Part shown: positions 20,457 through 32,100 of the stretch, in pieces
Layout of the letters: each line of letters begins with the position of its first letter
How positions within the stretch are numbered: position 1 is the first letter of the stretch
DNA from: Myxococcaceae bacterium
Lineage (GTDB): Bacteria > Myxococcota > Myxococcia > Myxococcales > Myxococcaceae
NCBI GenBank assembly: GCA_003818285.1
Contig: RPRB01000010.1
Location: 1 to 58,808 of the forward strand
Direction of reading: 5' to 3'
Length of the DNA: 58,808 nt
Notes under the pieces: generated by a model
Told to the model about the DNA's origin: nothing
The model's database searches: none
The model's input: only the letters and a program-made list of their open reading frames with translations
Made by a program: the position numbers and the translations under genes

Positions 20457-21377
20457 TTAGCCCGCCAGCGGCGGGTACACCGCAGGCCAGACGAAAGGCT
20501 TGATGGCCCCGAGCGGAAACTCGGCCCCGAACTCACCGCGGCGCCATCTGGCCGATGCCGCTCGGAAACTCGCAACGTAAGCCCGGTAGTGCTCGATGAA
20601 CGCTCGCCGGACTGTGGCGTGAGTTGCGTGACAATACGGTCGCGGTGACCGCTTTGGCCGAGAGGGACGATGATGCGGATGCTGGGAGAGCACTGCGGCT
20701 CGCCCCAAGACGCGCTCGTGGGTCCCCTCTGCCTCGCGCTCGGTTTTCCGGACGAGTTCGAGCACGCAACGTGCGCGGTGTTTTCTCGACAAACCCGCCC
20801 AATGGGGGAGCACAGCGAGCTCGAGCGTCTCCCGCTCTGCCCAGCGCGGGTGAAAGCGGTCAGTTGATGCCTGATCGTTTCGCGCTTTCCAGCGATTGGA
20901 CCACCCGAACCAAAGGAAGGTTCTCCGAGAGCCGCGGACGAGCATCCTGAGGCAGCTCAGTCCGGGCCAGTCCCGACATCTGCGGACCAACCCGTCCTTC
21001 ACCCCTTGGGCAAGGACGTACCGCAGCCGCTCGACCAGTGCCTCGTCGTCGAGAACCGGCTCGGCCGAGTAGCGCCGCTCCCAGAAGGTGCCGCGCCATC
21101 GCACGAGCCAGCCGACCTTTCGTGCGACGTTGCCCATGACGTACTGCATGAACTTCGAAAGGTTTCCGCGCGGTGCACGGACCAGGAGATGGAGGTGGTT
21201 CGACTGGAAGCTGAACGCGAAGACCTCGACGCCCATGAGTCGCGCCCCCCTCGCCAGTACACCGCCGAGGACCTCATTCGTCTCGCGTGACGGACGCATG
21301 AGCATTCGCGCCTGGCAGCACCTCGCCGTGACAAAGACTGCCAGCCCAGGAATCAACAACCTGAGCGGATAGCCCAC
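20457..21377 (-). CDS. Y1 (HUH) transposase, REP-associated (RAYT) type
   Basis: About 306 residues of the IS200/IS605-like Y1 transposase superfamily, solitary-gene (RAYT) branch. The N-terminus (PLRLLIPGLAVFVTAR) matches the 'plri..pg..yhvt.R' entry. The HUH metal site is SNHLHLLV, and LSKFMQYVMGNVARKVG followed by FWERRYSAEPV corresponds to the tyrosine helix. The classical 'tYaRyfN' Tyr position is Val here, so the nucleophile is uncertain; Tyr sits five residues earlier. The C-terminal part (HPHHRPSRPKRSP and later) is typical for the myxobacterial/planctomycete subgroup. GTG 21377 has a ribosome site (AAGGGGG); the frame opens at 21422. No inverted-repeat IS ends; direct copies of the 15-bp element flank it. 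Confidence 0.82.
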   Translation of the reverse strand: MGYPLRLLIPGLAVFVTARCCQARMLMRPSRETNEVLGGVLARGARLMGVEVFAFSFQSNHLHLLVRAPRGNLSKFMQYVMGNVARKVGWLVRWRGTFWERRYSAEPVLDDEALVERLRYVLAQGVKDGLVRRCRDWPGLSCLRMLVRGSRRTFLWFGWSNRWKARNDQASTDRFHPRWAERETLELAVLPHWAGLSRKHRARCVLELVRKTEREAEGTHERVLGRAAVLSQHPHHRPSRPKRSPRPYCHATHATVRRAFIEHYRAYVASFRAASARWRRGEFGAEFPLGAIKPFVWPAVYPPLAG

Positions 21378-21427
21378 GCGTTCCCCCTTGCCGGAGGAGG
21401 GCACCAGCACGAACCAGGCCAAGCGAC

Positions 21428-21442
21428 GTCTCAGAGAACTCG
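21428..21442 (+). repeat. Dispersed 15-bp element, exact copy, overlapping the cysteine desulfurase stop
   Basis: Read on the minus strand as CGA-GTT-CTC-TGA-GAC, it encodes the last three residues (Arg-Val-Leu) and the stop codon of the desulfurase gene. It is also the right-hand flank of the transposase gene. Related sequence (GACTCGATCGAG) continues into the coding region. Confidence 0.9.
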
Positions 21443-22537
21443 ATCGACAACTCGCTCAAGGACTCGATCGAGGGTCTGGAGGAGGGCGGTGACGTCCGCC
21501 TCGGTCGTATCCCGGCCGAAAGAGATGCGGATCGAGCCGCGCGCGTCCCGCTCCGACACCCCCATCGCCAGCAGCACCGGCGACGGCCGCATCGTTCCCG
21601 ACGCGCACGCCGCACCCACCGACACCGCGAATCCTTCCAGGTCTAGGGCCATCAACAGCGTCTCGGCATCTGCCCCGGGGAAACACACATTGCTCGTGTT
21701 CCCGAGCCGCACCGCCCCCGCCCCGTGCACCCGCACCCACGGTCGTGCCTCGCACAGCGTTCGCTCGAACCGGTCGCGCAATGTCGCAACCCTCGGACCT
21801 TCCGATCCCCTGCTCCTCTCCGCCAGCTCCAGCGCAAGCGCCGCCGCCTCGCAGAGCACCACCGCCGGCGTGCCGCCCCGGAGCCCGCCTTCCTGATGCC
21901 CAGGCACCAGCGGCTGGAGGGGGAGCCCCCGCCGGACTGCCAGGATCCCCACTCCCGCCGGCCCGCCGAACTTGTGCGCGGAGTACGCGACCACGTCCGC
22001 CTCGGACTCGGGTGGGAGCCGGGCCGGCGCCTGCACCGCGTCCACGAAGCTTGTCACCCCTCGCGCGCGCGCCATCCGCGCCACCTCGTCCGAGGGCTGG
22101 ACCACGCCGGTCTCGTTGTTCGCCGCCTGCAACGCACACAGGCCCGCGCCGCCCATCGCCGCCTCCATCGCCGCCGGCTCCACCCGCCCATCCGCCGCGG
22201 GCCGCACCTGGACCACCGGGGACCCGCGCCGCTCGGCCGCAAGCAGCACACAGGGGTGCTCGATGGCGCTGGTCACCAGGGCGGCCCCTCGGCCGACCCC
22301 GAGCACCGCCATGGCACACGCCTCGGACCCGGACGCGGTGAAGAGGACCTCGCGAGGAGCTCGGCCCAGGATGCGTGCCACCCGCGCCCGGGCCCCGTCG
22401 AGCCGCGCCCGGGCCGCTCGCCCGGGGCCGTGAACGCTGCTCGGATTGCCCGCAGTCTCCCGCCGGTACGCGGCGGCGAGGAACTCCGCCACCTCCGGGT
22501 GGAGCGGCGTGCCGGCGTTGTGGTCGAGGTAGGTCAC
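21431..22537 (-). CDS. Cysteine desulfurase, NifS/IscS family
   Basis: A 368-residue PLP enzyme that takes sulfur from cysteine for Fe-S clusters or thio-cofactors. The N-terminal YLDHNAGTPLHPEV, the PLP lysine K189 in SAHKFGGP, and the catalytic persulfide Cys311 in GAACASGTMRPSPVL are present. NNETG at 140-144 contacts PLP. The C-terminus (DRVLERVVDRVL) is repetitive because it runs into a dispersed 15-bp element that supplies the stop codon. The start ATG overlaps the stop of the DHH phosphoesterase gene (ATGA). No iscU or iscR is nearby, so the sulfur acceptor is unknown. Confidence 0.92.
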   Translation of the reverse strand: MTYLDHNAGTPLHPEVAEFLAAAYRRETAGNPSSVHGPGRAARARLDGARARVARILGRAPREVLFTASGSEACAMAVLGVGRGAALVTSAIEHPCVLLAAERRGSPVVQVRPAADGRVEPAAMEAAMGGAGLCALQAANNETGVVQPSDEVARMARARGVTSFVDAVQAPARLPPESEADVVAYSAHKFGGPAGVGILAVRRGLPLQPLVPGHQEGGLRGGTPAVVLCEAAALALELAERSRGSEGPRVATLRDRFERTLCEARPWVRVHGAGAVRLGNTSNVCFPGADAETLLMALDLEGFAVSVGAACASGTMRPSPVLLAMGVSERDARGSIRISFGRDTTEADVTALLQTLDRVLERVVDRVL

Positions 22538-23655
22538 CGCTCGAGGGCGGCGCTCTTCCAGGCCAGCAGAAGCGACCGCGGCCGCTCGCCCTTCGCCCCG
22601 AACGCCTCGAGGAAGGCCTGGGTCAGCTCACGCCGCAGGGCTGCCCCGGCCCGCCCGGCCGACAACGGGAGCCGCGCACCCGCCATGCTCCCGTGGCCAC
22701 CAGCGGACCCGCCGCGGTTCTCGCAGATGTCCCGGATGAGCCGCCCGGCATTCATTCGCCGGTCCCGTACCCGCAGTGAGACGTAGAGCTGGCGTCGAAA
22801 GGTCCCCATCGCCAGCGACCACTTCATTCCCTCGAGGAAGCTGAGCCGCTCCGCCACCTCGGCGACCATGTCCGGCGAGTACACCTCGCCCAGATCCACG
22901 GTCACCACCGTCTGCCCGTACACCCTCGCCCGACCGATCGCCGAGTGGTACAGCTGGAAGTACTCCGCCGGAAGGTCAGGGTGCTCGATGCGGCCGAGCA
23001 GATGCTTGTCCACCCGCGGAACGAGCCAGAGGTACGCATCGACGTCCGCGGGGGTCGTCTGCCGACCGAGATCCCGGCTATCCGTCTTGATGCCGTAGAA
23101 CAGCGCGGTCGCCACCTCGATGGAGGGCTCGAGCTTCGCCGCGCGCAGGTACTCCACGAGCATCGTCGAGGTGGCCCCGTACTCCCCGCCGACATCGGCG
23201 AACGGTGCACCGAGACTCTCGTCCCGCAGCGGGTGGTGGTCCAGCACCACCTCCACCGGGTACTGCGCGGGCACCGAGTGGTTCCCCACCGGCGGCTGTG
23301 TATCGACCAGCGCGAGGAGGTCGTGCTCGTCGAAGACGACCTGGCTCACGGGGCTGATGGGCAGCCGCAGCACCTTCACCAGCGCCAGGTTCTCCGCCCG
23401 ACCGATGATGCCGCCGTACACCACCCGGGCCTCCACGCCGGCCCGCTTCTCGAGAAGGAACGCCAGGGCCACCGCCGAGGCGATGCTGTCCGGGTCCGGA
23501 TTGTCGTGGGTCAGGACCAGCACCCGCTGTCGCCCCCGGGCGAGCTTGAGAAGCTCGTCGAGCTTGCTCCGGACCGGCAGCTCGGCGAGCGCGCGTTCCG
23601 GACTGGGAGGGTCCTCGGCCTTCGAGCGAGTCGAGGAGGATGAAGCGGACGGCAT
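22534..23655 (-). CDS. DHH-family phosphoesterase (NrnA/RecJ-like)
   Basis: A 373-residue protein with DHH and DHHA1 domains, like the nanoRNase/pAp phosphatase NrnA and c-di-AMP/pGpG-cleaving relatives. The manganese-ligand motifs are THDNPDPDSIAS (about 49-60), DTQPPVGNHS (about 117-126), VLDHHP (about 136-141) and GIKTDSRD (about 188-195). The DHHA1 motif GGHGSMAGARLP lies at about 322-333. The N-terminus is Ser/Glu-rich and variable. It probably degrades very short RNAs or cyclic-dinucleotide products. Its stop overlaps the desulfurase start; endonuclease IV lies 10 nt downstream of its own start region on the same strand. Confidence 0.88.
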   Translation of the reverse strand: MPSASSSSTRSKAEDPPSPERALAELPVRSKLDELLKLARGRQRVLVLTHDNPDPDSIASAVALAFLLEKRAGVEARVVYGGIIGRAENLALVKVLRLPISPVSQVVFDEHDLLALVDTQPPVGNHSVPAQYPVEVVLDHHPLRDESLGAPFADVGGEYGATSTMLVEYLRAAKLEPSIEVATALFYGIKTDSRDLGRQTTPADVDAYLWLVPRVDKHLLGRIEHPDLPAEYFQLYHSAIGRARVYGQTVVTVDLGEVYSPDMVAEVAERLSFLEGMKWSLAMGTFRRQLYVSLRVRDRRMNAGRLIRDICENRGGSAGGHGSMAGARLPLSAGRAGAALRRELTQAFLEAFGAKGERPRSLLLAWKSAALER

Positions 23656-23665
23656 GTGCGGCCTT

Positions 23666-24496
23666 TTACTTCCGGATCAGAGAATGGAGAAGCCGGAGCC
23701 CCCTTGCATAACGGCTCGAATCCGGGGTTTCCAGGACCGCGGGCGTGTCACCAAAGCGGGGGTCGTTCACCAGGAACCTGAATGCTGACAGGCCCATAGC
23801 TCCGCGGCCGATCTCCGCATGCCGGTCCACCCTTGCCCCGCGCGGGCGGAGGCTGTCGTTCAGGTGGAAGCAGCGGATCCGCCGCCGGCCGAATCGCCGG
23901 ACCGCTTCGCTCATCACCGCCTCGGTCCCGGATTCGCTGGACAGGTCATAGCCCGCGCTGAAGAGGTGACAAGTATCCAGGCAGACGCCGACCCGCCCGG
24001 GCGCGTTCACCCGTACGAGAATCTCTTCCAGGTGCTCGAGCCGATGTCCGAGACAGTTCCCCTGGCCGGCGGTGACCTCGAGACACACTCGCACGAAGAT
24101 CTCCGGCAGCTCGCTGTGGACCTCGTCGAGCGCCCGCGCGACGAGCTTGAGTCCTCGCCGCAGCGAGGGGTGCGAGCCTGGATGGAACACCAGGGCAGGG
24201 ATGCCGAGGGCCTCGCAGCGCAGCAGTTCATCGCGGACCGCCTCGAGGCTCCGCCCTCTCACCAGCGGATCTTCCGACGCGAGGTTGACGAGGTAGCTTC
24301 CGTGAGCGATTGCCGGTACGCCCGCTGCCCGTGCCGCCCGGCGGAAGGCCCTGCGCTCGTCCGCTGCGAGAGGCGGTGAGGACCAGCCGCGGGCCGACCG
24401 GGTGAAGATCTGCACCGATCGCGCTCCGTGCGCTGCGGCGCGCTGGAACGCAAGCGACACACCGCCCGCGACCGACTCGTGCGCTCCGAGCTTCAC
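23666..24496 (-). CDS. nfo: Deoxyribonuclease IV (apurinic endonuclease)
   Basis: A 276-residue TIM-barrel AP endonuclease of base excision repair. It has the N-terminal KLGAHESVAGGVSLAFQRA, AIAHGSYLVNLAS (about 62-74), VFHPGSHP, the family pattern CLDTCHLFSAGYDL (about 172-185), CFHLNDSL (about 209-216) and DRHAEIGRGAMG (about 224-235). These supply the three-zinc site His, Asp and Glu ligands. Length and motif order are normal. It is encoded 10 nt after the Fic-fold gene and followed by the DHH phosphoesterase gene, suggesting a minus-strand unit of nucleic-acid enzymes. Confidence 0.93.
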   Translation of the reverse strand: MKLGAHESVAGGVSLAFQRAAAHGARSVQIFTRSARGWSSPPLAADERRAFRRAARAAGVPAIAHGSYLVNLASEDPLVRGRSLEAVRDELLRCEALGIPALVFHPGSHPSLRRGLKLVARALDEVHSELPEIFVRVCLEVTAGQGNCLGHRLEHLEEILVRVNAPGRVGVCLDTCHLFSAGYDLSSESGTEAVMSEAVRRFGRRRIRCFHLNDSLRPRGARVDRHAEIGRGAMGLSAFRFLVNDPRFGDTPAVLETPDSSRYARGLRLLHSLIRK

Positions 24497-24506
24497 CGCG
24501 CCGGGA

Positions 24507-25340
24507 TCAGTTGATCGCCCGGTACCTCCGCGCCTGATCGCGGAAGTACTTCAGCCCGTTGTCCAGCGAGTTTTCCATCGCGTCCATCATGAGCACGCGG
24601 AAGGAGGCCGGCGTACCGCGGAAAGACTCGTAGTACCGCTGCCGATCGATGGAGTGGATGATGCACGGGAGGTATCCGTGCCGGGCGAGGACGAGGTTGG
24701 ACGTCATCCGCGCCACCTTCCCCGAGTGCTCGCTGAACGGGAAGACCTGCAGGAACTGGAACTGGAACGTCGCAGCCTGCTTGATGGGGTGGTACTCGCG
24801 GAACTCGGTCGAGCCGGTGAACTCGATCAGCTTGTCCAGGAGCCCCTGGATCTTCGCGGGCTGCGCAATGTCGTGGAAGTAGGTGCGGTGCAGCGGCATG
24901 TCCTTCCGAAGCCCCGCGCGCTCGCGCTCCTTGGCCAGCTCCTTTTCCGTCCGTTCCCGTCGCTCGAGCTGCGCCCGTATCGCCTGCGCCTCGGGGGTGT
25001 TCCCGAGCAGGAGATCGTGGATGCGCTTCACCGTGGCCATCGGAACGGCCGAGGCCTTCCGGCCGGACGTGCGCGCCTCCTCGCGGATGTAGTCGATCGC
25101 TGCCTTGTGATTGCGGATGTCGAGCACCGCGGGGAGCAGCGAGGCCTCGGGCGGAGCGCCGCTGGGATCGAGCCCTGCGGCCAGCTCTTGCTCGTTGTAG
25201 ACCACGCCCTCGAGCGCGTTGTCGTGGTAAACCCAGGCCCGCTCGAAGCGAGACATGAACGCCGGCGCCTTGGGATGCTCGCCGAGGAGCTCCCGCAGCG
25301 CGTCGTTCTTGTCGTCGATGTCCTGGTAACGTTCCTTCAA
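24507..25340 (-). CDS. Fic/DOC-fold protein lacking the catalytic motif
   Basis: A 277-residue protein of the Fido superfamily. Canonical enzymes carry HPFx(D/E)GNGRxxR, whose His accepts the nucleotide target and whose Asn/Arg hold the phosphates. Here the aligned segment (200-211) reads FPFSEHSGKVAR: His is Phe200, Gly-Asn are His-Ser, and Arg is Lys. The preceding HPIKQAATFQFQFLQV and following SNLVLARHGY fit the fold well. An inhibitory-helix-like stretch (NALEGVVYNEQEL, about 41-53) is present. AMP-transfer activity is therefore unlikely by the known mechanism. TTG 25340 is the apparent start, without a clear ribosome site; a later start cannot be excluded. It sits upstream of nfo. Confidence 0.78.
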   Translation of the reverse strand: MKERYQDIDDKNDALRELLGEHPKAPAFMSRFERAWVYHDNALEGVVYNEQELAAGLDPSGAPPEASLLPAVLDIRNHKAAIDYIREEARTSGRKASAVPMATVKRIHDLLLGNTPEAQAIRAQLERRERTEKELAKERERAGLRKDMPLHRTYFHDIAQPAKIQGLLDKLIEFTGSTEFREYHPIKQAATFQFQFLQVFPFSEHSGKVARMTSNLVLARHGYLPCIIHSIDRQRYYESFRGTPASFRVLMMDAMENSLDNGLKYFRDQARRYRAIN

Positions 25341-26038
25341 GGGGGGTGGGGGGCGCAGCGAGGGCGGGGGAGGCTAATCGCCTCGGACGCACTGCGCAAG
25401 AGTCGGCCGGGCGTTCAGCCGCCCGGGAACACTGCCTGCCCGCTGACCACTCTGGAGGGGACGCGCGGCAGTGCGCCGGCCGGCGAGGTCCCCGGCGCGG
25501 TCTCGGAACTCGTCCGCCGGCGAGGTTCTCCGCCGACGACTTCTCTGAGAACCCATCGGAATGCGTCAGAGAACTCGTCGGAACCCCGGCCTGAAACCGG
25601 AGAGTCCGCGACCCGCCTCCCGGCGCCCCCAGAATCTCGGAGAACTCGTCGAGGTCGGTCCCGAGTTCCGGACTCCGGCCAACGTCTCAGAGAACTCGTC
25701 GCAGAGAACTCGTCGCACCGGCCGGCAGGCGCGCTCGGCAGAGAACCCGTCGAAACTCCTGGGGATGAGGTCTCCGACCGGGGGCCAGCCGAGTGCCACT
25801 GACGTCTCAGAGAACTCGCCATCGAGAACTCGTCATCGGCCTGACGGGGAGGGCCAGCCGAGCCCTCCTGAGGTCTCAGTAAACGCGTTCATCGGCCTGA
25901 CCGGAGGGGCCAGCGGGGCGCCACCGAGGTCTCAGAGAACTCGTCGGGGCTCGATGGCGCCGCCGGCGACGACCCTGGAGAGATCCGGCCGACGTTCCTC
26001 CGAGAGCGCCCCGTGCCCGCCGGCCGTGCCCACCCCGC
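25341..26038. other. 698-nt intergenic region dominated by decayed repeats
   Basis: Between two minus-strand genes. The left 150 nt (25341-25490) is GC-rich with no feature I can name and should hold the Fic-gene promoter. The rest is the repeat cluster listed separately. Reading frames across it are produced by the repeats (recurrent EFSE/ENSS-type peptides) and are not judged genes. Confidence 0.6.
25535..25945. repeat. Cluster of at least nine intact and decayed 15-bp elements
   Basis: Exact copies lie at 25684-25698, 25804-25818 and 25929-25943. Degenerate ones lie near 25540, 25565, 25634, 25702, 25738, 25823 and 25873. From about 25823 the cluster becomes a tandem array with a period near 56 bp, each unit being the element followed by CATCGGCCTGAC, a G-rich stretch and GGCCAGC. 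It looks like local amplification and decay of one element type. The nearest genes point toward the minus strand. Confidence 0.8.
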
Positions 26039-26986
26039 TCAGACGTACGTGAGCCACTCCGAGTACCGGGGCTCCTGGCCTCGGACGACCCGGAAGTACG
26101 TGTCCTGGACCTTCTTCACCACCGGCCCGGGGGCCCCGGTGCCGATCCGCCGGTTGTCCACCTCACGGACCGGGGTGATCTCCGCCGCCGTCCCGGTGAA
26201 GAACACCTCGTTCGAGATGTACAGCGCATCGCGGGTGAAGGTGACCTCCTCCACCGGGTGCCCCATGTCCTTCAGGATGCGGAGCACCGAGCGCCGCGTG
26301 ATGCCGGCGAGGATCGGGGAGGACAGCGGCGGCGTCCGCACGATGTCCTTCTTGTTCACCATGAACACGTTCTCACCCGAGGCCTCGGCGACGAAGCCCG
26401 CCATGTCGAGAAGGATGGCCTCGTCATAGCCCGCCTGCACCACCTCGCGCTTCGCGAGGATGCCGTTCACGTACTGTCCGGTGATTTTCCCCCGGACCAT
26501 GTTCACGTTCACGTGCATGCGGGTGAAGCTCGACACCTTCGCCCGGATTCCCTCGCGCATCCCCTTGTCGCCCAAGTACGCGCCCCAGTCCCACGCCGTG
26601 ATCGCCACACGGGTGGGGTTCACCGCCCCGAGGCCCATCGCCCCGTCGCCCATGAAGGCGATCGGCCGCAGGTAGGCCCCGTTCGAGAACCGCTGCCGCT
26701 GCACCCGGAGCACCTCCAGGCAGGCCTCGCAGAGCTGGTCCTCGCTGTAGGGCAGCTGCAGCTGGATGATGTGGCACGAGTCGGCAAAGCGCTTCATGTG
26801 CTCGCGCAGCCGGAACACTGCCAGCCGCCCGTCGTGCGTGCGGTAGGCGCGGAGGCCCTCGAACACTCCCAGCCCGTAGTGCAGGGCGTGGGTCATGATC
26901 GGCACCTGCCCCTGCGCCCAGGGGATGATCTTCCCGTCCAGCCAGATGCTGTCTGCGGTGAGGATCGCGTTGGAGGTCGAGCTCAT
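26039..26986 (-). CDS. ilvE: Branched-chain amino acid aminotransferase
   Basis: A 315-residue class IV PLP aminotransferase that interconverts Val/Leu/Ile and their 2-oxo acids. The opening IWLDGKIIPWAQGQVPIMTHALHYG, GVFEGLRAY, the PLP-lysine region (MVRGKITGQYVNGILAKREV) and 'GYDEAILLDMAGFVAEASGENVF' are all family signatures, as is the GTAAEITPVREVDNRRIG stretch near the C-terminus. ATG 26986 is the preferred start; an upstream frame extends to 27007. It is a single gene downstream of the receiver-TPR protein and just upstream of the repeat cluster. Confidence 0.95.
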   Translation of the reverse strand: MSSTSNAILTADSIWLDGKIIPWAQGQVPIMTHALHYGLGVFEGLRAYRTHDGRLAVFRLREHMKRFADSCHIIQLQLPYSEDQLCEACLEVLRVQRQRFSNGAYLRPIAFMGDGAMGLGAVNPTRVAITAWDWGAYLGDKGMREGIRAKVSSFTRMHVNVNMVRGKITGQYVNGILAKREVVQAGYDEAILLDMAGFVAEASGENVFMVNKKDIVRTPPLSSPILAGITRRSVLRILKDMGHPVEEVTFTRDALYISNEVFFTGTAAEITPVREVDNRRIGTGAPGPVVKKVQDTYFRVVRGQEPRYSEWLTYV

Positions 26987-27031
26987 GTCGGGGCCCAACC
27001 TCCGCACGCCGCGCCCCCGCAGTCAAAGGCT

Positions 27032-29137
27032 TCAGGACGGCCTGGGCTGTGCCAGCCGCGCCGCCCAGGTGAGGATGCTCAGCTCCCGCAGCGCCTCGGT
27101 GCACCCCGGGTTGCACTCCACGGCCTTCTCGTACTCGCCCTGCGCCTCACCGGTCTGGCCCAGCGCCTTGTGCACGTGCCCCTTGTAGAGGTGGGCCCGG
27201 TCGAGGGTGGGGCTCCGCTCCACGGCCTCGGCGAGGAACGTCAGCGCCTCTCGACCCGCGACGGCGTCCGACGGAGCCCGGGCGTGGGTCGTCCAGCCCA
27301 GGAGCGCCAGGAACTCGCCTTCGTCGGGCTGCAGCCGCACGGCCTCGCTGAACGCCGCGTGCGCCCCCGGGACATTCCCCGCCGCAAGGAGCTGCTCGCC
27401 CCGCCGGAACGCGCTCTCCGCCTCGAGCATGCGGCCGACCGCCTCGCCCACCTCGTGCTTCACGCCGCCAACCCGGAGCTCCGCCCGGTACCGGTCGCGA
27501 GACGCCGGGTCGACCAGGGTGTCGTGCGCCTTGCCGACCAGCTCGGCGATCTGGTGGACCACCGTCTCCACCTCGGCCGAGCTGGCCGGGCCGTCGACGC
27601 GGTACTCGCGGAGCAGCTCCACCGCGGCGGACCGGACCGCGTCGGGCGGAGCGTCGTGACGCAGCCCCAGGAGCTCGAAGTAGTCCATCCGGCGCATGGC
27701 CGCGAGCGCGCCCAGGAGGCGCTCGCGCAGATGGCCCTCGTCGTCACCGGGCACCTCGTCCTCGAGCTCCAGGACCTCCTCGTCCTCGTCCCAGGGCCGG
27801 TCTCCCGGCGCCCGCGCCACCGTGGCCTGGAGGCGAGGCGGAGGCGGTCCGGTCCGACGCTCGGTCCGGAGCTCCACCATCTGCGAGCAGAGCAGGGCGT
27901 AGAGGAAACGGTCCGTGTCCAGCGGCGACAGCGGCCCTCGCCGCCGGAGCTCCCGCACGGTTCGGCTCCCGTCCATGAGCGCCAGGAGCCCCGCCTCCTC
28001 TTCACCGAGCGACATGTCCTGCGCGGCGAACAGCGGATCCTCGGCCGGGTGCACGTACTTGCCGGCGATCTCCCCCAGCGCCTTCTTGATGCGGGTGGTG
28101 TCGTAACTCCGCTTGATGCCCTCGTGGACGATGCCCGCGGTGGACATCTGCAGGCGCACCGTCTCCGAAGGCGGCTGTGCTCGGGGGTTGAACTGGAACT
28201 CGCCCCTGGTCCAGCCGAACACCTCGAGCAGCTTCAGCCGCAGCTGCAGCTCCAGCGCGTAGCGGAGGTTGTGCGGGCTGATGCAGCCCATCTCGATCAG
28301 CACTGTGCCCTGCTGGCGCCCCGAGGTCTTCATCCGCTTCAGCGACTCCTCGCAGTCGGCCTCGGAGATCATCCGCTCGCGGACCATCACCCGCCCGAGG
28401 CACTCCGACAGCCGGTTGCTCTTGACGCTCTCCGGGGCGCCGGCGCGGAAGAAGACGATCTTCTTCACCTTGTCCCGCCGGAGCAGCAGCCCTCCGGTGG
28501 AACGGCGCCGGTGGAGGTCGGCCAGCAGCTCGGGGAAGGCCCGGGCGGCGAAGCTTCCCCGGTCGACTGCCGGCGCGCTGGCCGGTGCGGCGCGGATTCC
28601 CGCCTCGTCGGCGGCGGGCTCGGCAGCGGTCGACTCGGCGGCGGTGAACTCGACCAGCGAGGCCTCCGCCCGGGCACGCGGATCGGCCAGCGGCTCCGAC
28701 GCCGGTTCGGGCGATCCGTTGGAGGGAGGCGGGGGCGGCGGTTTCGGGAAGCGCTCGCCCAGCACCCCCTCGAGCTTCCCGAACAGCTGGTTCAGCTTGA
28801 ACGGCTTCTCGACGAACCCCGCGGCGCCGTGGCGCTCCACGGCCTGCGCCTGGTGCATCTTCGTCTTGTAGATCCCCGACAGCATCAGCACCGGGGTGCC
28901 CTCCCCGCGCGGGGTGCTCTTGATCCGCCGGGCGACCTCGTAGCCGTTCAGCGCCGGGAGCAACACGTCGAGGAGCACCACGTCGAATGGCTGCCGCTCG
29001 AAGGCGGCCAGCGCCGCCTCGCCGTCCCGCTCCACCGTCACCCGGAAGCCCGCCCTGGTGAGCGCATCCGCCAGCATGCGCTGGACGTTGCGGTCGTCGT
29101 CGACCACCAGCACGTGGACGGGGTCCGTGGGGGCCAC
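27032..29137 (-). CDS. Receiver - DUF4388 - J-domain-like - TPR protein
   Basis: A 701-residue modular protein. A complete response-regulator receiver occupies about 1-125 (LVVDDDRN, phosphoacceptor in VVLLDVLLP, VEKPF). A Pro/Ala-rich linker (about 125-185) follows. Then comes a DUF4388/PatA-N-like domain (about 185-320: AFPELLADLHRRRSTGGLLL and RLKLLEVFGWTRGEFQFNP). A J-domain-like segment lies near 525-590 (MDYFELLGLRHDAPPDAVRS) and TPR repeats close the chain (HLYKGHVHKALGQTGEAQGE). Such chimeras are common in myxobacteria, where they act in motility, surface or envelope signalling; the role here is unknown. GTG 29137 has an AAGGA site; the frame is open further upstream inside glnE. It follows glnE by 22 nt. 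Confidence 0.85.
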   Translation of the reverse strand: MAPTDPVHVLVVDDDRNVQRMLADALTRAGFRVTVERDGEAALAAFERQPFDVVLLDVLLPALNGYEVARRIKSTPRGEGTPVLMLSGIYKTKMHQAQAVERHGAAGFVEKPFKLNQLFGKLEGVLGERFPKPPPPPPSNGSPEPASEPLADPRARAEASLVEFTAAESTAAEPAADEAGIRAAPASAPAVDRGSFAARAFPELLADLHRRRSTGGLLLRRDKVKKIVFFRAGAPESVKSNRLSECLGRVMVRERMISEADCEESLKRMKTSGRQQGTVLIEMGCISPHNLRYALELQLRLKLLEVFGWTRGEFQFNPRAQPPSETVRLQMSTAGIVHEGIKRSYDTTRIKKALGEIAGKYVHPAEDPLFAAQDMSLGEEEAGLLALMDGSRTVRELRRRGPLSPLDTDRFLYALLCSQMVELRTERRTGPPPPRLQATVARAPGDRPWDEDEEVLELEDEVPGDDEGHLRERLLGALAAMRRMDYFELLGLRHDAPPDAVRSAAVELLREYRVDGPASSAEVETVVHQIAELVGKAHDTLVDPASRDRYRAELRVGGVKHEVGEAVGRMLEAESAFRRGEQLLAAGNVPGAHAAFSEAVRLQPDEGEFLALLGWTTHARAPSDAVAGREALTFLAEAVERSPTLDRAHLYKGHVHKALGQTGEAQGEYEKAVECNPGCTEALRELSILTWAARLAQPRPS

Positions 29138-29159
29138 CTGGACGTCCTTCCTACCACGC

Positions 29160-32100
29160 TCACTGCTGTAGGACACGGACGTAGGCCGCTCGCACTGTGG
29201 CTGCGACCGCGCGGTATTCCGACAGGAACGCACCGCCGGCGTCCGGCCCTCCGTACCCCAGCCGCCGTGCGAGCAGCAGCAGCGGTCGACCGCGGGTCGG
29301 GAGGTGCTGCAGCGCGCGCCCGTGCACCAGTCGCTGACGGTTCTCGACGCGGCGCAGGAAGAGGTACCCCTCGCGGAGCTCGCCGGCGTCCTCCCGATGC
29401 AGCTTGCCTCCCGCGGCCAGCGCTGCCAGCGCGTCCAGGGTCCCGGGCTGGCGCACCGCCGGGAGCACCGCACCGTGCACCAGCTGCAGGTACTGGGTCG
29501 CGAACTCCACGTCGACCAGGCCGCCCTGTCCGGTCTTGGGGTTGAGCTGGTCCACGGACTCGCCGGCCACCTCGCGCTCCATCCTCATCCGGAGCCGGTG
29601 GATCTCCTCGGCTGCACCCTCGGGGAGAGGTCGTTCCCAGACGAGCGGTGCGAGCGCCGCGCCGAGAAGCCGCTCCCCGTACGCCACGTCGCCCGCCACC
29701 GCCCGCGCCTTCACCAACGCCTGGCGCTCCCAGAGCTGCGCCCGGCGCGTGTGGTGCTCGAGGAGGGCCTCCTCGCTCACCACCAGCGGGCCCTGGTTCC
29801 CCGAGGGCCGGAGGCGCGTGTCCACCTGGTAGAGGCGTCCCTCGCGGTACTGCAGCGTCAGGAGCGAGAGCAGCCGCTGCACCATCCGGGCGAAGTACTC
29901 GTGGTGTCCGATGCGCCCGGCGCTGCCCCCGGTGGTCTCCTCGTCGGCGCTCGAGCCGTAGACGAAGAGCAGATCCAGGTCCGAGTGGAACCCGAGCTCG
30001 CGTCCACCGAGCTTCCCCATCCCCAGGACCGCCAGCGGGGCTCGCCGTCCGTCCCGCATCCGGGGGAGGCCCCAGCGTGCGCGGGCGTGCTCGGCGGCGA
30101 GGAGCATCGCGTGATCGAGCAGGCCGTCGGCGAGCGCCGTAAGCTGCCGCGCGACCTCCGGGACCTCGAGCTCTCCGGCGATGTCGCCGAGTCCCACCCG
30201 GAGCACCTCCTCGTTCTTGAACCGGCGAAGCGCTCCCAGCAGCTGCTCCGGATCCTCGGTGGCCCGCGCCGCCCGGCCGTCGAGCTCGGAGCGGATGCGC
30301 TCCGGCGGCTTGTGCAGGGCCTCGGCGTCCCAGGACACCAGCTGGTCGAGTAGCTCCGGCGTCCGGACCAGCTCCGCGCTCAGGTAGGCGCTCTGCCCGA
30401 AGAGGTCGAGCAGCCGCCGCGCCACCGCCGGCCGCGATGCGAGGAGCCGGAGATAGCCAGCCGGCACGGAGAGGGCCGAGGCGAAGTCCGCGAGGTAGAA
30501 GAGCGCCTGGTCCGGATCGGGGCTCCGCACCACCCCCTGCAGCAGGTGGAGAGCGACTGCCGACGGCCCGGGACCCTCCTCGAGCCGCGCTGCGCCGAGC
30601 ACCCGCCGGAGCCGCTGCACCGACGCCAGGGCCGCGGTGGGGTCGTCGAAGCCTCGCCGCGCGAGCGCCTCGGTGCGCGCGCCGTCGTCCAGGTCCTCGT
30701 CCAGGGCGACGACCAGCTCGGGCTCCTGCGCGAGCTCGCCGCGAGCCTCCCGTCCGAGCAGGACGTGGAAGGCCTGCGCCACGTAGGTCCGATGCCGGTC
30801 GAGCTCCGCCTCGAACGCGGCCGCGTCGGCGAAACCGAGCGAGTGCGCCAGGCGATCTCGCTCCGGCCCGGGCGGAGGCAGCACCTGGGTCTGCCGCTCG
30901 TCCACCATCTGAAGCCGGTTCTCCACCCTCCGGAGGAAGGCGTAGGCCTCGAGGAGCCGATCGGCATCGGCCTGACTGAGCAGCCCCGCCTCCACCAGCC
31001 GGCGCAGCGCGCGCTGGGTGGAACGGACCCGGAGCGCCGGATTCCGCCCTCCGTGGAGCAGCTGCAGCGCCGCCGCGACGAACTCCACCTCGCGAATTCC
31101 GCCCGGCCCCAGCTTCACGTCGCTCTCGCGGGCGGTGCTGCGGAGGTCGATCTGCATCTTGAGATCCCGCAGCGCCTCCACCGCGGCCAGGTCGAGCGTC
31201 CTCCGCCAGACGAACGGGCCGAGCCCCTCGAGCAGCTCCTGTCCCAGAGCGACGTCGCCCGCGACGGGGCGGGCCTTGATCCACGCCGCGCGCTCCCAGG
31301 TGCGGCCCTGCTGCTCGTAGTACTGCAGCATTGCTGGCAGCGAGCTCACCGCCGCTCCGGCGCGTCCCTGCGGACGAAGGTCCAGGTCCACCCGGAAGCA
31401 GAAGCCGTCCTCGGTGACGGTGGACATGGTGCGGGCCAGCGCCTCGGCGAGCCGGGTGTAATAGGTCACGGTGGGCACGGACCCCGCGGTGCCTCCCGCG
31501 GTCATGCCGTCTCCGCGGTGGACCAGCACCAGGTCGATGTCCGAGCTCCAGTTGAGGTCCTCGCCGCCGAGCTTGCCCAGCCCGAGCACCACGAAGCCCT
31601 CCGGGACGGGGGCGCCGTAGCGCCGGCGCAGCGGAGCCTCCAGCGCGGGCAGCACTGCCCGGAGCAGTGCCTCGGCCAGCGCCGTCTGCTCGCGCCCCAG
31701 CGTCTCCATCCCCACCCCCAGCCACGCGTCGCGCGCTGCCAGCCGCAGCGCCTGACGCGCCTTGAAGCGGCGGAGCCGTCGGAGCAGATCCTCGGTGTCC
31801 TCGCCATCGCCCCGACGGAGGAGCGTGGCCAGCGTGTCCGCCAGCGCCGCAGCATCCAGCTGTGCCGAAGTGGTGGCGCTCCGGTGCACCCAGCGGAGGA
31901 GCCCCGGGCGGCGCTGGAGCACCCGCTGCATGGACTCGCTGGCCAGGACCAGCCGGGTCGCCAGGGCCTCCGCGCCCGGCGCTCCGAGCAGCGCCTCCTG
32001 GATCCGGAGCAGCCCTCGGGTGGCGGAGTCGATCTCCCCGGTGCGGCGGATGGCGTCCACCAGCTCCGCCGCGCGGCGCTCGCCGAGCCGGGCCGCGAGC

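What the first reader, a model, noticed from the sequence alone, without database searches (positions are those of the whole stretch)
24507..25340. Fic-fold protein without the catalytic His: a likely pseudoenzyme
The motif HPFx(D/E)GNGRxxR reads FPFSEHSGKVAR (200-211), losing His, Gly-Asn and the first Arg, while the surrounding fold and an inhibitory-helix-like NALEG remain. Such proteins may have switched chemistry, bind nucleotides or targets without AMPylation, or regulate other Fic enzymes. It lies in line with DNA-repair and RNA-decay genes.
Basis: partly seen in the sequence, partly recalled or inferred. Interest (0 to 1): 0.5.

Follow-up and report, generated by a model that had tools for sequence, protein, structure and literature searches.

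The report
Remodelled Fic protein conserved across Myxococcota
An inherited protein of the bacterial phylum Myxococcota keeps the shape of Fic enzymes, which attach nucleotides to proteins, but has lost their key histidine and carries instead a different, strictly preserved set of residues, so it looks put to a new use rather than fallen into decay.

Summary
Window 25340..24507 (minus) encodes a 277-aa Fic protein (Pfam Fic 4.9e-10; model closest to human FICD, Z 28.1) whose loop reads FPFSEHSGKVAR, without the catalytic His.

It is not decay. A family-level match occurs in 176 of 195 sampled Myxococcota genomes (177, one a canonical paralogue), one of 1.3 Mb included. In the 151 distinct sequences read, position 200 is Phe 141, Tyr 9, gap 1, never His. 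Representatives form one clade against canonical HPF relatives.

The newly invariant residues sit in the flap: P149, H151, Y154. H151 aligns with FICD Val316, a flap residue reported to lie where the in-line nucleophile would attack (PMC6826200 passages). Loop positions E204, 205 and K208 drift.

Best reading: a Fic scaffold with a relocated acid/base (flap H151 with E44) acting on a phosphate-linked ligand (0.4). Main rival: a natural substrate trap/reader like FICD-H363A (0.3). Ligand and chemistry are unknown and the flap is predicted poorly. Neighbours are conserved only within the class. New variant of a known kind.

The parts
24507..25340 (-). CDS of the His-less Fic-fold protein, 277 aa, TTG start, stop included
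   Evidence: homologue starts
25206..25226 (-). residues 39-45 HDNALEG, counterpart of the inhibitory helix motif; E44 aligns with FICD Glu234
   Evidence: H39 151/151, G45 151/151, E44 E134 D17 of 151
24930..24992 (-). residues 117-137, charged insert present in the family of the window but gapped in 37-40 of 107 distinct homologues
24858..24908 (-). residues 145-161 RKDMPLHRTYFHDIAQP, the flap, with the family-specific invariants P149, H151, Y154
   Evidence: flap pLDDT low (148-157 under 50)
24708..24743 (-). residues 200-211 FPFSEHSGKVAR, the Fic loop without catalytic His
24630..24647 (-). residues 232-237 DRQRYY; R233, Y236 and Y237 shared with canonical Fic relatives (Y237 aligns with FICD Tyr400)
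23666..24496 (-). deoxyribonuclease IV (nfo) family gene, next downstream
   Evidence: 31 of 73 class loci at the cut used
22534..23655 (-). DHH/DHHA1 phosphoesterase gene
   Evidence: 68 of 73 class loci
21431..22537 (-). cysteine desulfurase-like aminotransferase class V gene
   Evidence: 60 of 71 class loci
26039..27007 (-). branched-chain amino acid transaminase (ilvE) upstream
   Evidence: 48 of 75 class loci, 5 of 31 outside

Best explanation
Shown: a vertically inherited, normally single-copy protein of Myxococcota that kept the class-II (FICD-like) Fic fold but whose active site was rebuilt: the general-base His became Phe/Tyr, and Pro149, His151 and Tyr154 became fixed in the flap that covers the site. 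Inferred: it is still an enzyme. A phosphate-linked ligand (a nucleotide, or a nucleotide already attached to a protein) lies between the anion nest with Arg211 and the flap. His151, at the place of FICD Val316, supplies the acid/base (or nucleophile) that His363 supplies in FICD, and the gate carboxylate (E44, or Asp) places the water or nucleophile. Because the Mg-binding and beta/gamma-phosphate positions (E204, K208) drift, canonical MgATP-driven AMPylation is unlikely; hydrolysis of, or transfer from, a phosphodiester is the commonest reaction to test first.
For: Family-wide loss of His (0 of 150 with a residue). Family-specific near-invariants against 11 canonical relatives: P149 150/152 (V in 11), H151 151/152 (I10 V1), Y154 152/152 (none with Y), F200 142/152 (H in 11). 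H151 aligned with FICD Val316, which lies at the in-line nucleophile position (PMC6826200 passages); flap residues pointing inward form the slot for the target side chain and can hover over the alpha-phosphate (PMC8401265 section 13). Gate carboxylate E134/D17 of 151 and R211 149 with 2 gaps. Drift at E204 (rank 106), 205 (rank 217), K208 (rank 82) of 277 positions by entropy. FICD-like fold Z 28.1, rmsd 2.8, 243 aligned. Purifying selection. Retained in a 1.3-Mb genome.
Against: No activity is shown. The flap, where the argument rests, is predicted under pLDDT 50 in both models, so that H151 faces the pocket is inferred from alignment next to a 3-residue gap with FICD. One of 151 sequences has N at 151 and four have G at 152. 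Invariant flap residues could equally bind a fixed protein partner. H156, R145, H39, R233 and Y236, although invariant, are shared with canonical relatives and so do not mark new chemistry. FICD needs His363 also for deAMPylation (PMC8373988 passages).
Confidence: 0.4

Rival explanations
1. Natural substrate trap or reader: a non-catalytic Fic that recognises a nucleotide or a nucleotide-modified protein and holds it, as the engineered FICD-H363A does with AMPylated BiP.
For: Losing only the His while keeping the gate Glu is what the trap mutant does; FICD-H363A binds BiP-AMP tightly with low off rates (PMC6826200 passages). R211, G207, R233, Y236 and mostly Y237 are kept.
Against: A reader need not fix His151 and Tyr154 at the slot. 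The nest changed (S/T/N at 206) and loop positions drift. No modified partner is known.
Confidence: 0.3
2. Protein-binding scaffold: the flap region is a docking surface for a fixed housekeeping partner and the pocket is structural only.
For: [quoted passage not shown] Flap low confidence in both models, as for a segment that folds on a partner.
Against: Pocket positions such as R211, G207, R233, Y236 are as invariant as the flap, which a surface scaffold would not need.
Confidence: 0.2
3. Residual canonical AMPylase: transfers AMP without the His.
For: A review-type analysis says an IbpA His-to-Ala mutant kept some activity and describes a Gln-for-His Doc clade (PMC4454073 section 6).
Against: Metal carboxylate and first Arg positions are not held (E103 D29 K6 Q4 S3 among 151; K115 R20 M5 S3), and FICD-H363A gives only background AMP (passage).
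Confidence: 0.07
4. Simple decay of one Fic copy.
For: The motif departs from the consensus at four places.
Against: Same departures phylum-wide, dN/dS 0.06 and 0.16, one clade.
Confidence: 0.02

Closest known systems
FICD/HYPE (human class-II Fic AMPylase/deAMPylase)
   Same: Fold over nearly the whole chain (Z 28.1, rmsd 2.8, 243 aligned, 22% identity); gate Glu, R374 counterpart R211, Tyr400 counterpart Y237.
   Different: No His363 (F200), Asn369 is S206, Arg371 is K208; flap Val316 is H151 with a 3-residue longer flap; no TPR domain in the 277 aa.
BT_2513 (PDB 3cuc) and single-domain canonical Fic proteins of Pseudomonadota and Spirochaetota samples
   Same: Closest non-family sequences; single-domain layout.
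   Different: The seven read (L216-L222) all have HPFxDGNGR and I/V where the family has H151.
Bartonella Bep Fic domains with non-canonical motifs (BepC; Bep8)
   Same: Fic folds kept with altered motif; binding role without found activity for BepC (passages).
   Different: Injected effectors of a pathogen lineage, not core genes of a phylum; their motif changes differ.
Doc clade D2 (Qx[F/Y]x[D/E][G/V]NKR)
   Same: A clade with the His replaced throughout (PMC4454073 section 6).
   Different: Doc, not FICD-like; Gln not Phe/Tyr; NKR kept.
AvrB
   Same: Fido fold without the Fic motif; structures with UDP and rhamnosylated RIN4 are listed (Z about 11.8).
   Different: Much weaker structural match than FICD.

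Membership tests
Fic/Doc (Pfam PF02661) | profile match above the curated cut-off | tested here: met
   40.5 bits against 24; 55 of 55 A1 members match at E 0.01 or better
Fic/Doc (Pfam PF02661) | Fido fold | tested here: met
   FICD chain 4u0u_A Z 28.1, rmsd 2.8, 243 aligned; Foldseek best E 2.7e-10
catalytic Fic (HPFx[D/E]GN[G/K]RxxR) | catalytic His | tested here: not met
   F in the window; F141 Y9 gap 1 of 151
catalytic Fic (HPFx[D/E]GN[G/K]RxxR) | anion-nest Asn and first Arg | tested here: not met
   S and K in the window; S135 T11 N3 A1 gap 1, and K115 R20 among 151
catalytic Fic (HPFx[D/E]GN[G/K]RxxR) | last Arg of the motif | tested here: met
   R149, gap 2 of 151
class II Fic (own N-terminal inhibitory helix, (S/T)xxxE(G/N); motif recalled) | gate Glu followed by G | tested here: met
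   E44-G45; E134 D17 and G151 of 151
class II Fic (own N-terminal inhibitory helix, (S/T)xxxE(G/N); motif recalled) | Ser/Thr four before the Glu | tested here: not met
   D40; D98 E53 of 151
AMPylase or deAMPylase | enzymatic activity | not testable with these tools
   no assay
FicT/FicA-type toxin-antitoxin | adjacent small antitoxin gene | tested here: inconclusive
   neighbours found are housekeeping genes, but the neighbour scan took ORFs of 90 aa or more, so a short antitoxin would be missed
SoFic / PDC-S04 defence candidates | PADLOC profile match | tested here: inconclusive
   E 9.6e-9 (SoFic) and 8.6e-10 (PDC-S04) for P0002, up to 1.2e-16 for L073; that library gave no cut-offs and these are the levels of general Fic likeness

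The most novel reading that the evidence does not exclude
A phylum-wide core enzyme made from a Fic AMPylase by moving the catalytic histidine from the Fic loop to the flap: His151 at the in-line position opposite the alpha-phosphate, acting as acid/base or even as a phospho-accepting nucleophile, with a chemistry and substrate not yet known for any Fido-fold protein.
Probability: 0.3. Interest if true: 0.85.

Novelty: new variant of a known kind. Interest (0 to 1): 0.6.

Why it matters
Fic proteins are usually patchily distributed, often mobile or toxin-like, and judged by their His motif. Here a His-less Fic is a vertically inherited gene of a phylum, kept in a 1.3-Mb genome, and the conserved residues have shifted to the flap. 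If it is an enzyme, it shows how a Fido active site can be rebuilt around another residue; if a reader, it would be a natural counterpart of the engineered FICD trap. In both cases motif-based annotation would miss its function, and a deletion in a laboratory Myxococcus can test it directly.

Tried and rejected
Decay: rejected. Mobile or phage origin: no relative in two viral-contig scans; plasmids 29 records, best listed identity 28.0%, phages 2 records, 25.7% at best, i.e. general Fic likeness. Regulator of other Fic enzymes: no canonical HPF Fic seen in this genome. Function from gene context: the conserved order (ilvE, this gene, nfo, DHH, cysteine desulfurase) is class-level only (chained clusters were not trusted). 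In 31 loci outside the class DHH was 0, nfo 1, ilvE 5; eight Polyangia-like loci have a TPR protein downstream and six a GTP cyclohydrolase II-like one, neither general. Gamma: nitrogen link through the nearby glnE: dropped, no evidence.

Against universality: 19 of 195 phylum genomes lack the family match (18 with none plus G053, whose only match is a canonical HPF Fic). G053 (99% complete) also lacks the DHH gene, so the segment may be lost or unassembled; G165, G166, G167 and G107 lack DHH too, G183 has DHH but no Fic. So the gene is dispensable or was not assembled in some genomes.

Outside the phylum: 2 of 299 genomes (phylum of L074's genome) and 9 of 149 (phylum of L075's genome) matched at E 1e-25 or better; 7 of these 11 were fetched and read, all canonical; 4 were not read. 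Other phyla were covered only by the peptide-pattern scan of genome contigs, which finds close relatives only: 43 of its 45 loci are family members, all in Myxococcota by genome match or title except one titled Comamonas (see noticed).

Limits of method: the tree is the quick method with SH-aLRT only, motif columns were not left out, and one of its 14 outgroup rows (L212) was labelled canonical without its motif being verified. Sequences with E above 1e-50 were dropped from the family before counting: 4 (L134, L203-L205), all HPF., 91 and the other paper searches showed no description of this family; PMC7180214 and PMC2701414 hold both 'Fic' and 'Myxococcus xanthus' and were not opened, so absence from print is only as good as those searches of one open-access library.

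Full report
What was claimed and what is there. The ORF at 24507..25340 is on the minus strand, 277 aa from a TTG. Compared with canonical Fic (HPFx(D/E)GNGRxxR) His is Phe, the nest Gly-Asn is His-Ser, and the first Arg is Lys; the last Arg remains. HDNALEG at 39-45 lies where FICD has its inhibitory helix.

Spread. With the single protein, 95 of 98 relatives matched. A profile of 55 members (A1) matched 142 of 147 genomes of the class and 177 of 195 of the phylum at E 1e-15. One of these, G053, matches only through a canonical HPF Fic (L205), so the family count is 141 of 147 and 176 of 195; among genomes at least 90% complete and at most 5% contaminated the tool counts 143 of 149, G053 included. 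Members occur in a 1.3-Mb genome (G172). In the listed places, matches below 1e-50 occur once per genome; second matches are weaker, and the four of those that were in the set read are canonical. The scores are bimodal in the set read: family down to 6e-62, others from 4e-27 up (samples L216-L222 outside the phylum reach 2.7e-37).

Sequence constraint. Of 199 family ORFs, 151 are distinct. Position 200: F141, Y9, gap 1. Others of 151: H39 151, G45 151, E44 E134 D17, R145 151, P149 149 (Q1 M1), H151 150 (N1), R152 141 (K6 G4), Y154 151, H156 150 (gap 1), P161 149, S206 S135 T11 N3 A1, G207 150, R211 149 (gap 2), R233 149 (gap 2), Y236 149 (gap 2). In contrast E204 is E103 D29 K6 Q4 S3 and others, K208 is K115 R20 M5 S3 and others. 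By entropy over 277 positions E204 ranks 106, K208 82, 205 217. Against 11 canonical relatives the family-specific near-invariants are P149, H151, Y154, I158, F200 and the packing positions F28, L43, V47; R145, H39, H156 (H in 9 of 11), H184, R233, Y236 are shared and so are inherited Fic features.

History. In a quick maximum-likelihood tree 51 family representatives are separated from 14 outgroup rows by one branch (SH-aLRT 99), and deep families of the phylum mostly group together. Thirteen of the 14 outgroup rows show HPF. This fits one loss of the His before the phylum's radiation, followed by vertical descent. dN/dS to the two nearest relatives is 0.06 and 0.16.

Structure. AlphaFold2 with 32 sequences gave pLDDT 84.5, pTM 0.83; residues 148-157 are under 50. 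A second model of a member without the insert (L073) gave 81.4, with its flap 113-134 under 50. FICD chains are the best matches (4u0u_A Z 28.1, rmsd 2.8, 243 aligned). The profile alignment with FICD pairs F200 with His363, E204 with Asp367, S206 with Asn369, K208 with Arg371, R211 with Arg374, Y237 with Tyr400, E44 with Glu234 and H151 with Val316, the numbering taken from His363; the last pairing stands beside a 3-residue gap, but without that gap 11 canonical relatives have I10/V1 at 151.

Mechanism. In FICD Glu234 positions the water and His363 protonates the leaving group in deAMPylation (PMC8373988 passages). Flap Val316 lies within the space of an in-line nucleophile at the alpha-phosphate (PMC6826200 passages), and inward flap residues form the target slot and can stabilise the transition state (PMC8401265 section 13). 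A His fixed at that place, together with loss of the loop His and relaxation of the Mg and beta/gamma-phosphate positions, suggests that the acid/base moved to the flap and the ligand is not MgATP in the usual mode. This is inference: no coordinates could be measured and the flap is poorly predicted. The main rival, a substrate trap or reader, follows from the tight binding of BiP-AMP by FICD-H363A.

Context. In the class, same-strand neighbours at the cut used are DHH 68 of 73, cysteine desulfurase 60 of 71, ilvE 48 of 75, nfo 31 of 73 loci (some further loci have short nfo matches under the cut); outside the class DHH 0 of 31, nfo 1 of 31, cysteine desulfurase 3 of 25, ilvE 5 of 31. So the operon-like order is a regional habit. 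In G053 the gene and DHH are absent together.

Known or new. NCBIfam has no family for it (best 0.025) and Pfam only the general Fic domain. Published His-replaced groups seen here are the Gln-type Doc clade and non-canonical Bartonella motifs. Paper searches listed nothing on this family. It fails the catalytic Fic motif, so it is not filed as an AMPylase; it is a new subfamily with the Fic fold.

Noticed in passing
window 25534-25946: A 14-base repeat (CAGAGAACTCGTCG, up to one mismatch) occurs seven times in the intergenic stretch upstream of the gene, once elsewhere in the window; 4 of 5 exact copies in the genome lie here; it is absent from the sister species' locus L031.
   Followed up: partly
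window 20457-21422 (-): IS200-like (Y1) transposase domain protein, Pfam 6.7e-8.
   Followed up: no
window 27032-29473 (-): Unusual chain: response regulator receiver, DUF4388, a weak DnaJ match and TPR in one ORF.
   Followed up: no
L053 (BNCN01000003.1): A record titled Comamonas sp. KCTC 72670 carries a 66% identical copy; a contig of the same length (767,272) is placed in the window's family as G041, so the title looks wrong.
   Followed up: partly
L207 (G000:C391): Only other Pfam Fic match of the genome: partial, Doc-like, with RRFLDGNKR in the frame; may be a remnant.
   Followed up: no
residues 117-137, window 24930-24992: A charged insert before the flap is present in the Myxococcaceae-like members and gapped in 37-40 of 107 distinct homologues.
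   Followed up: no
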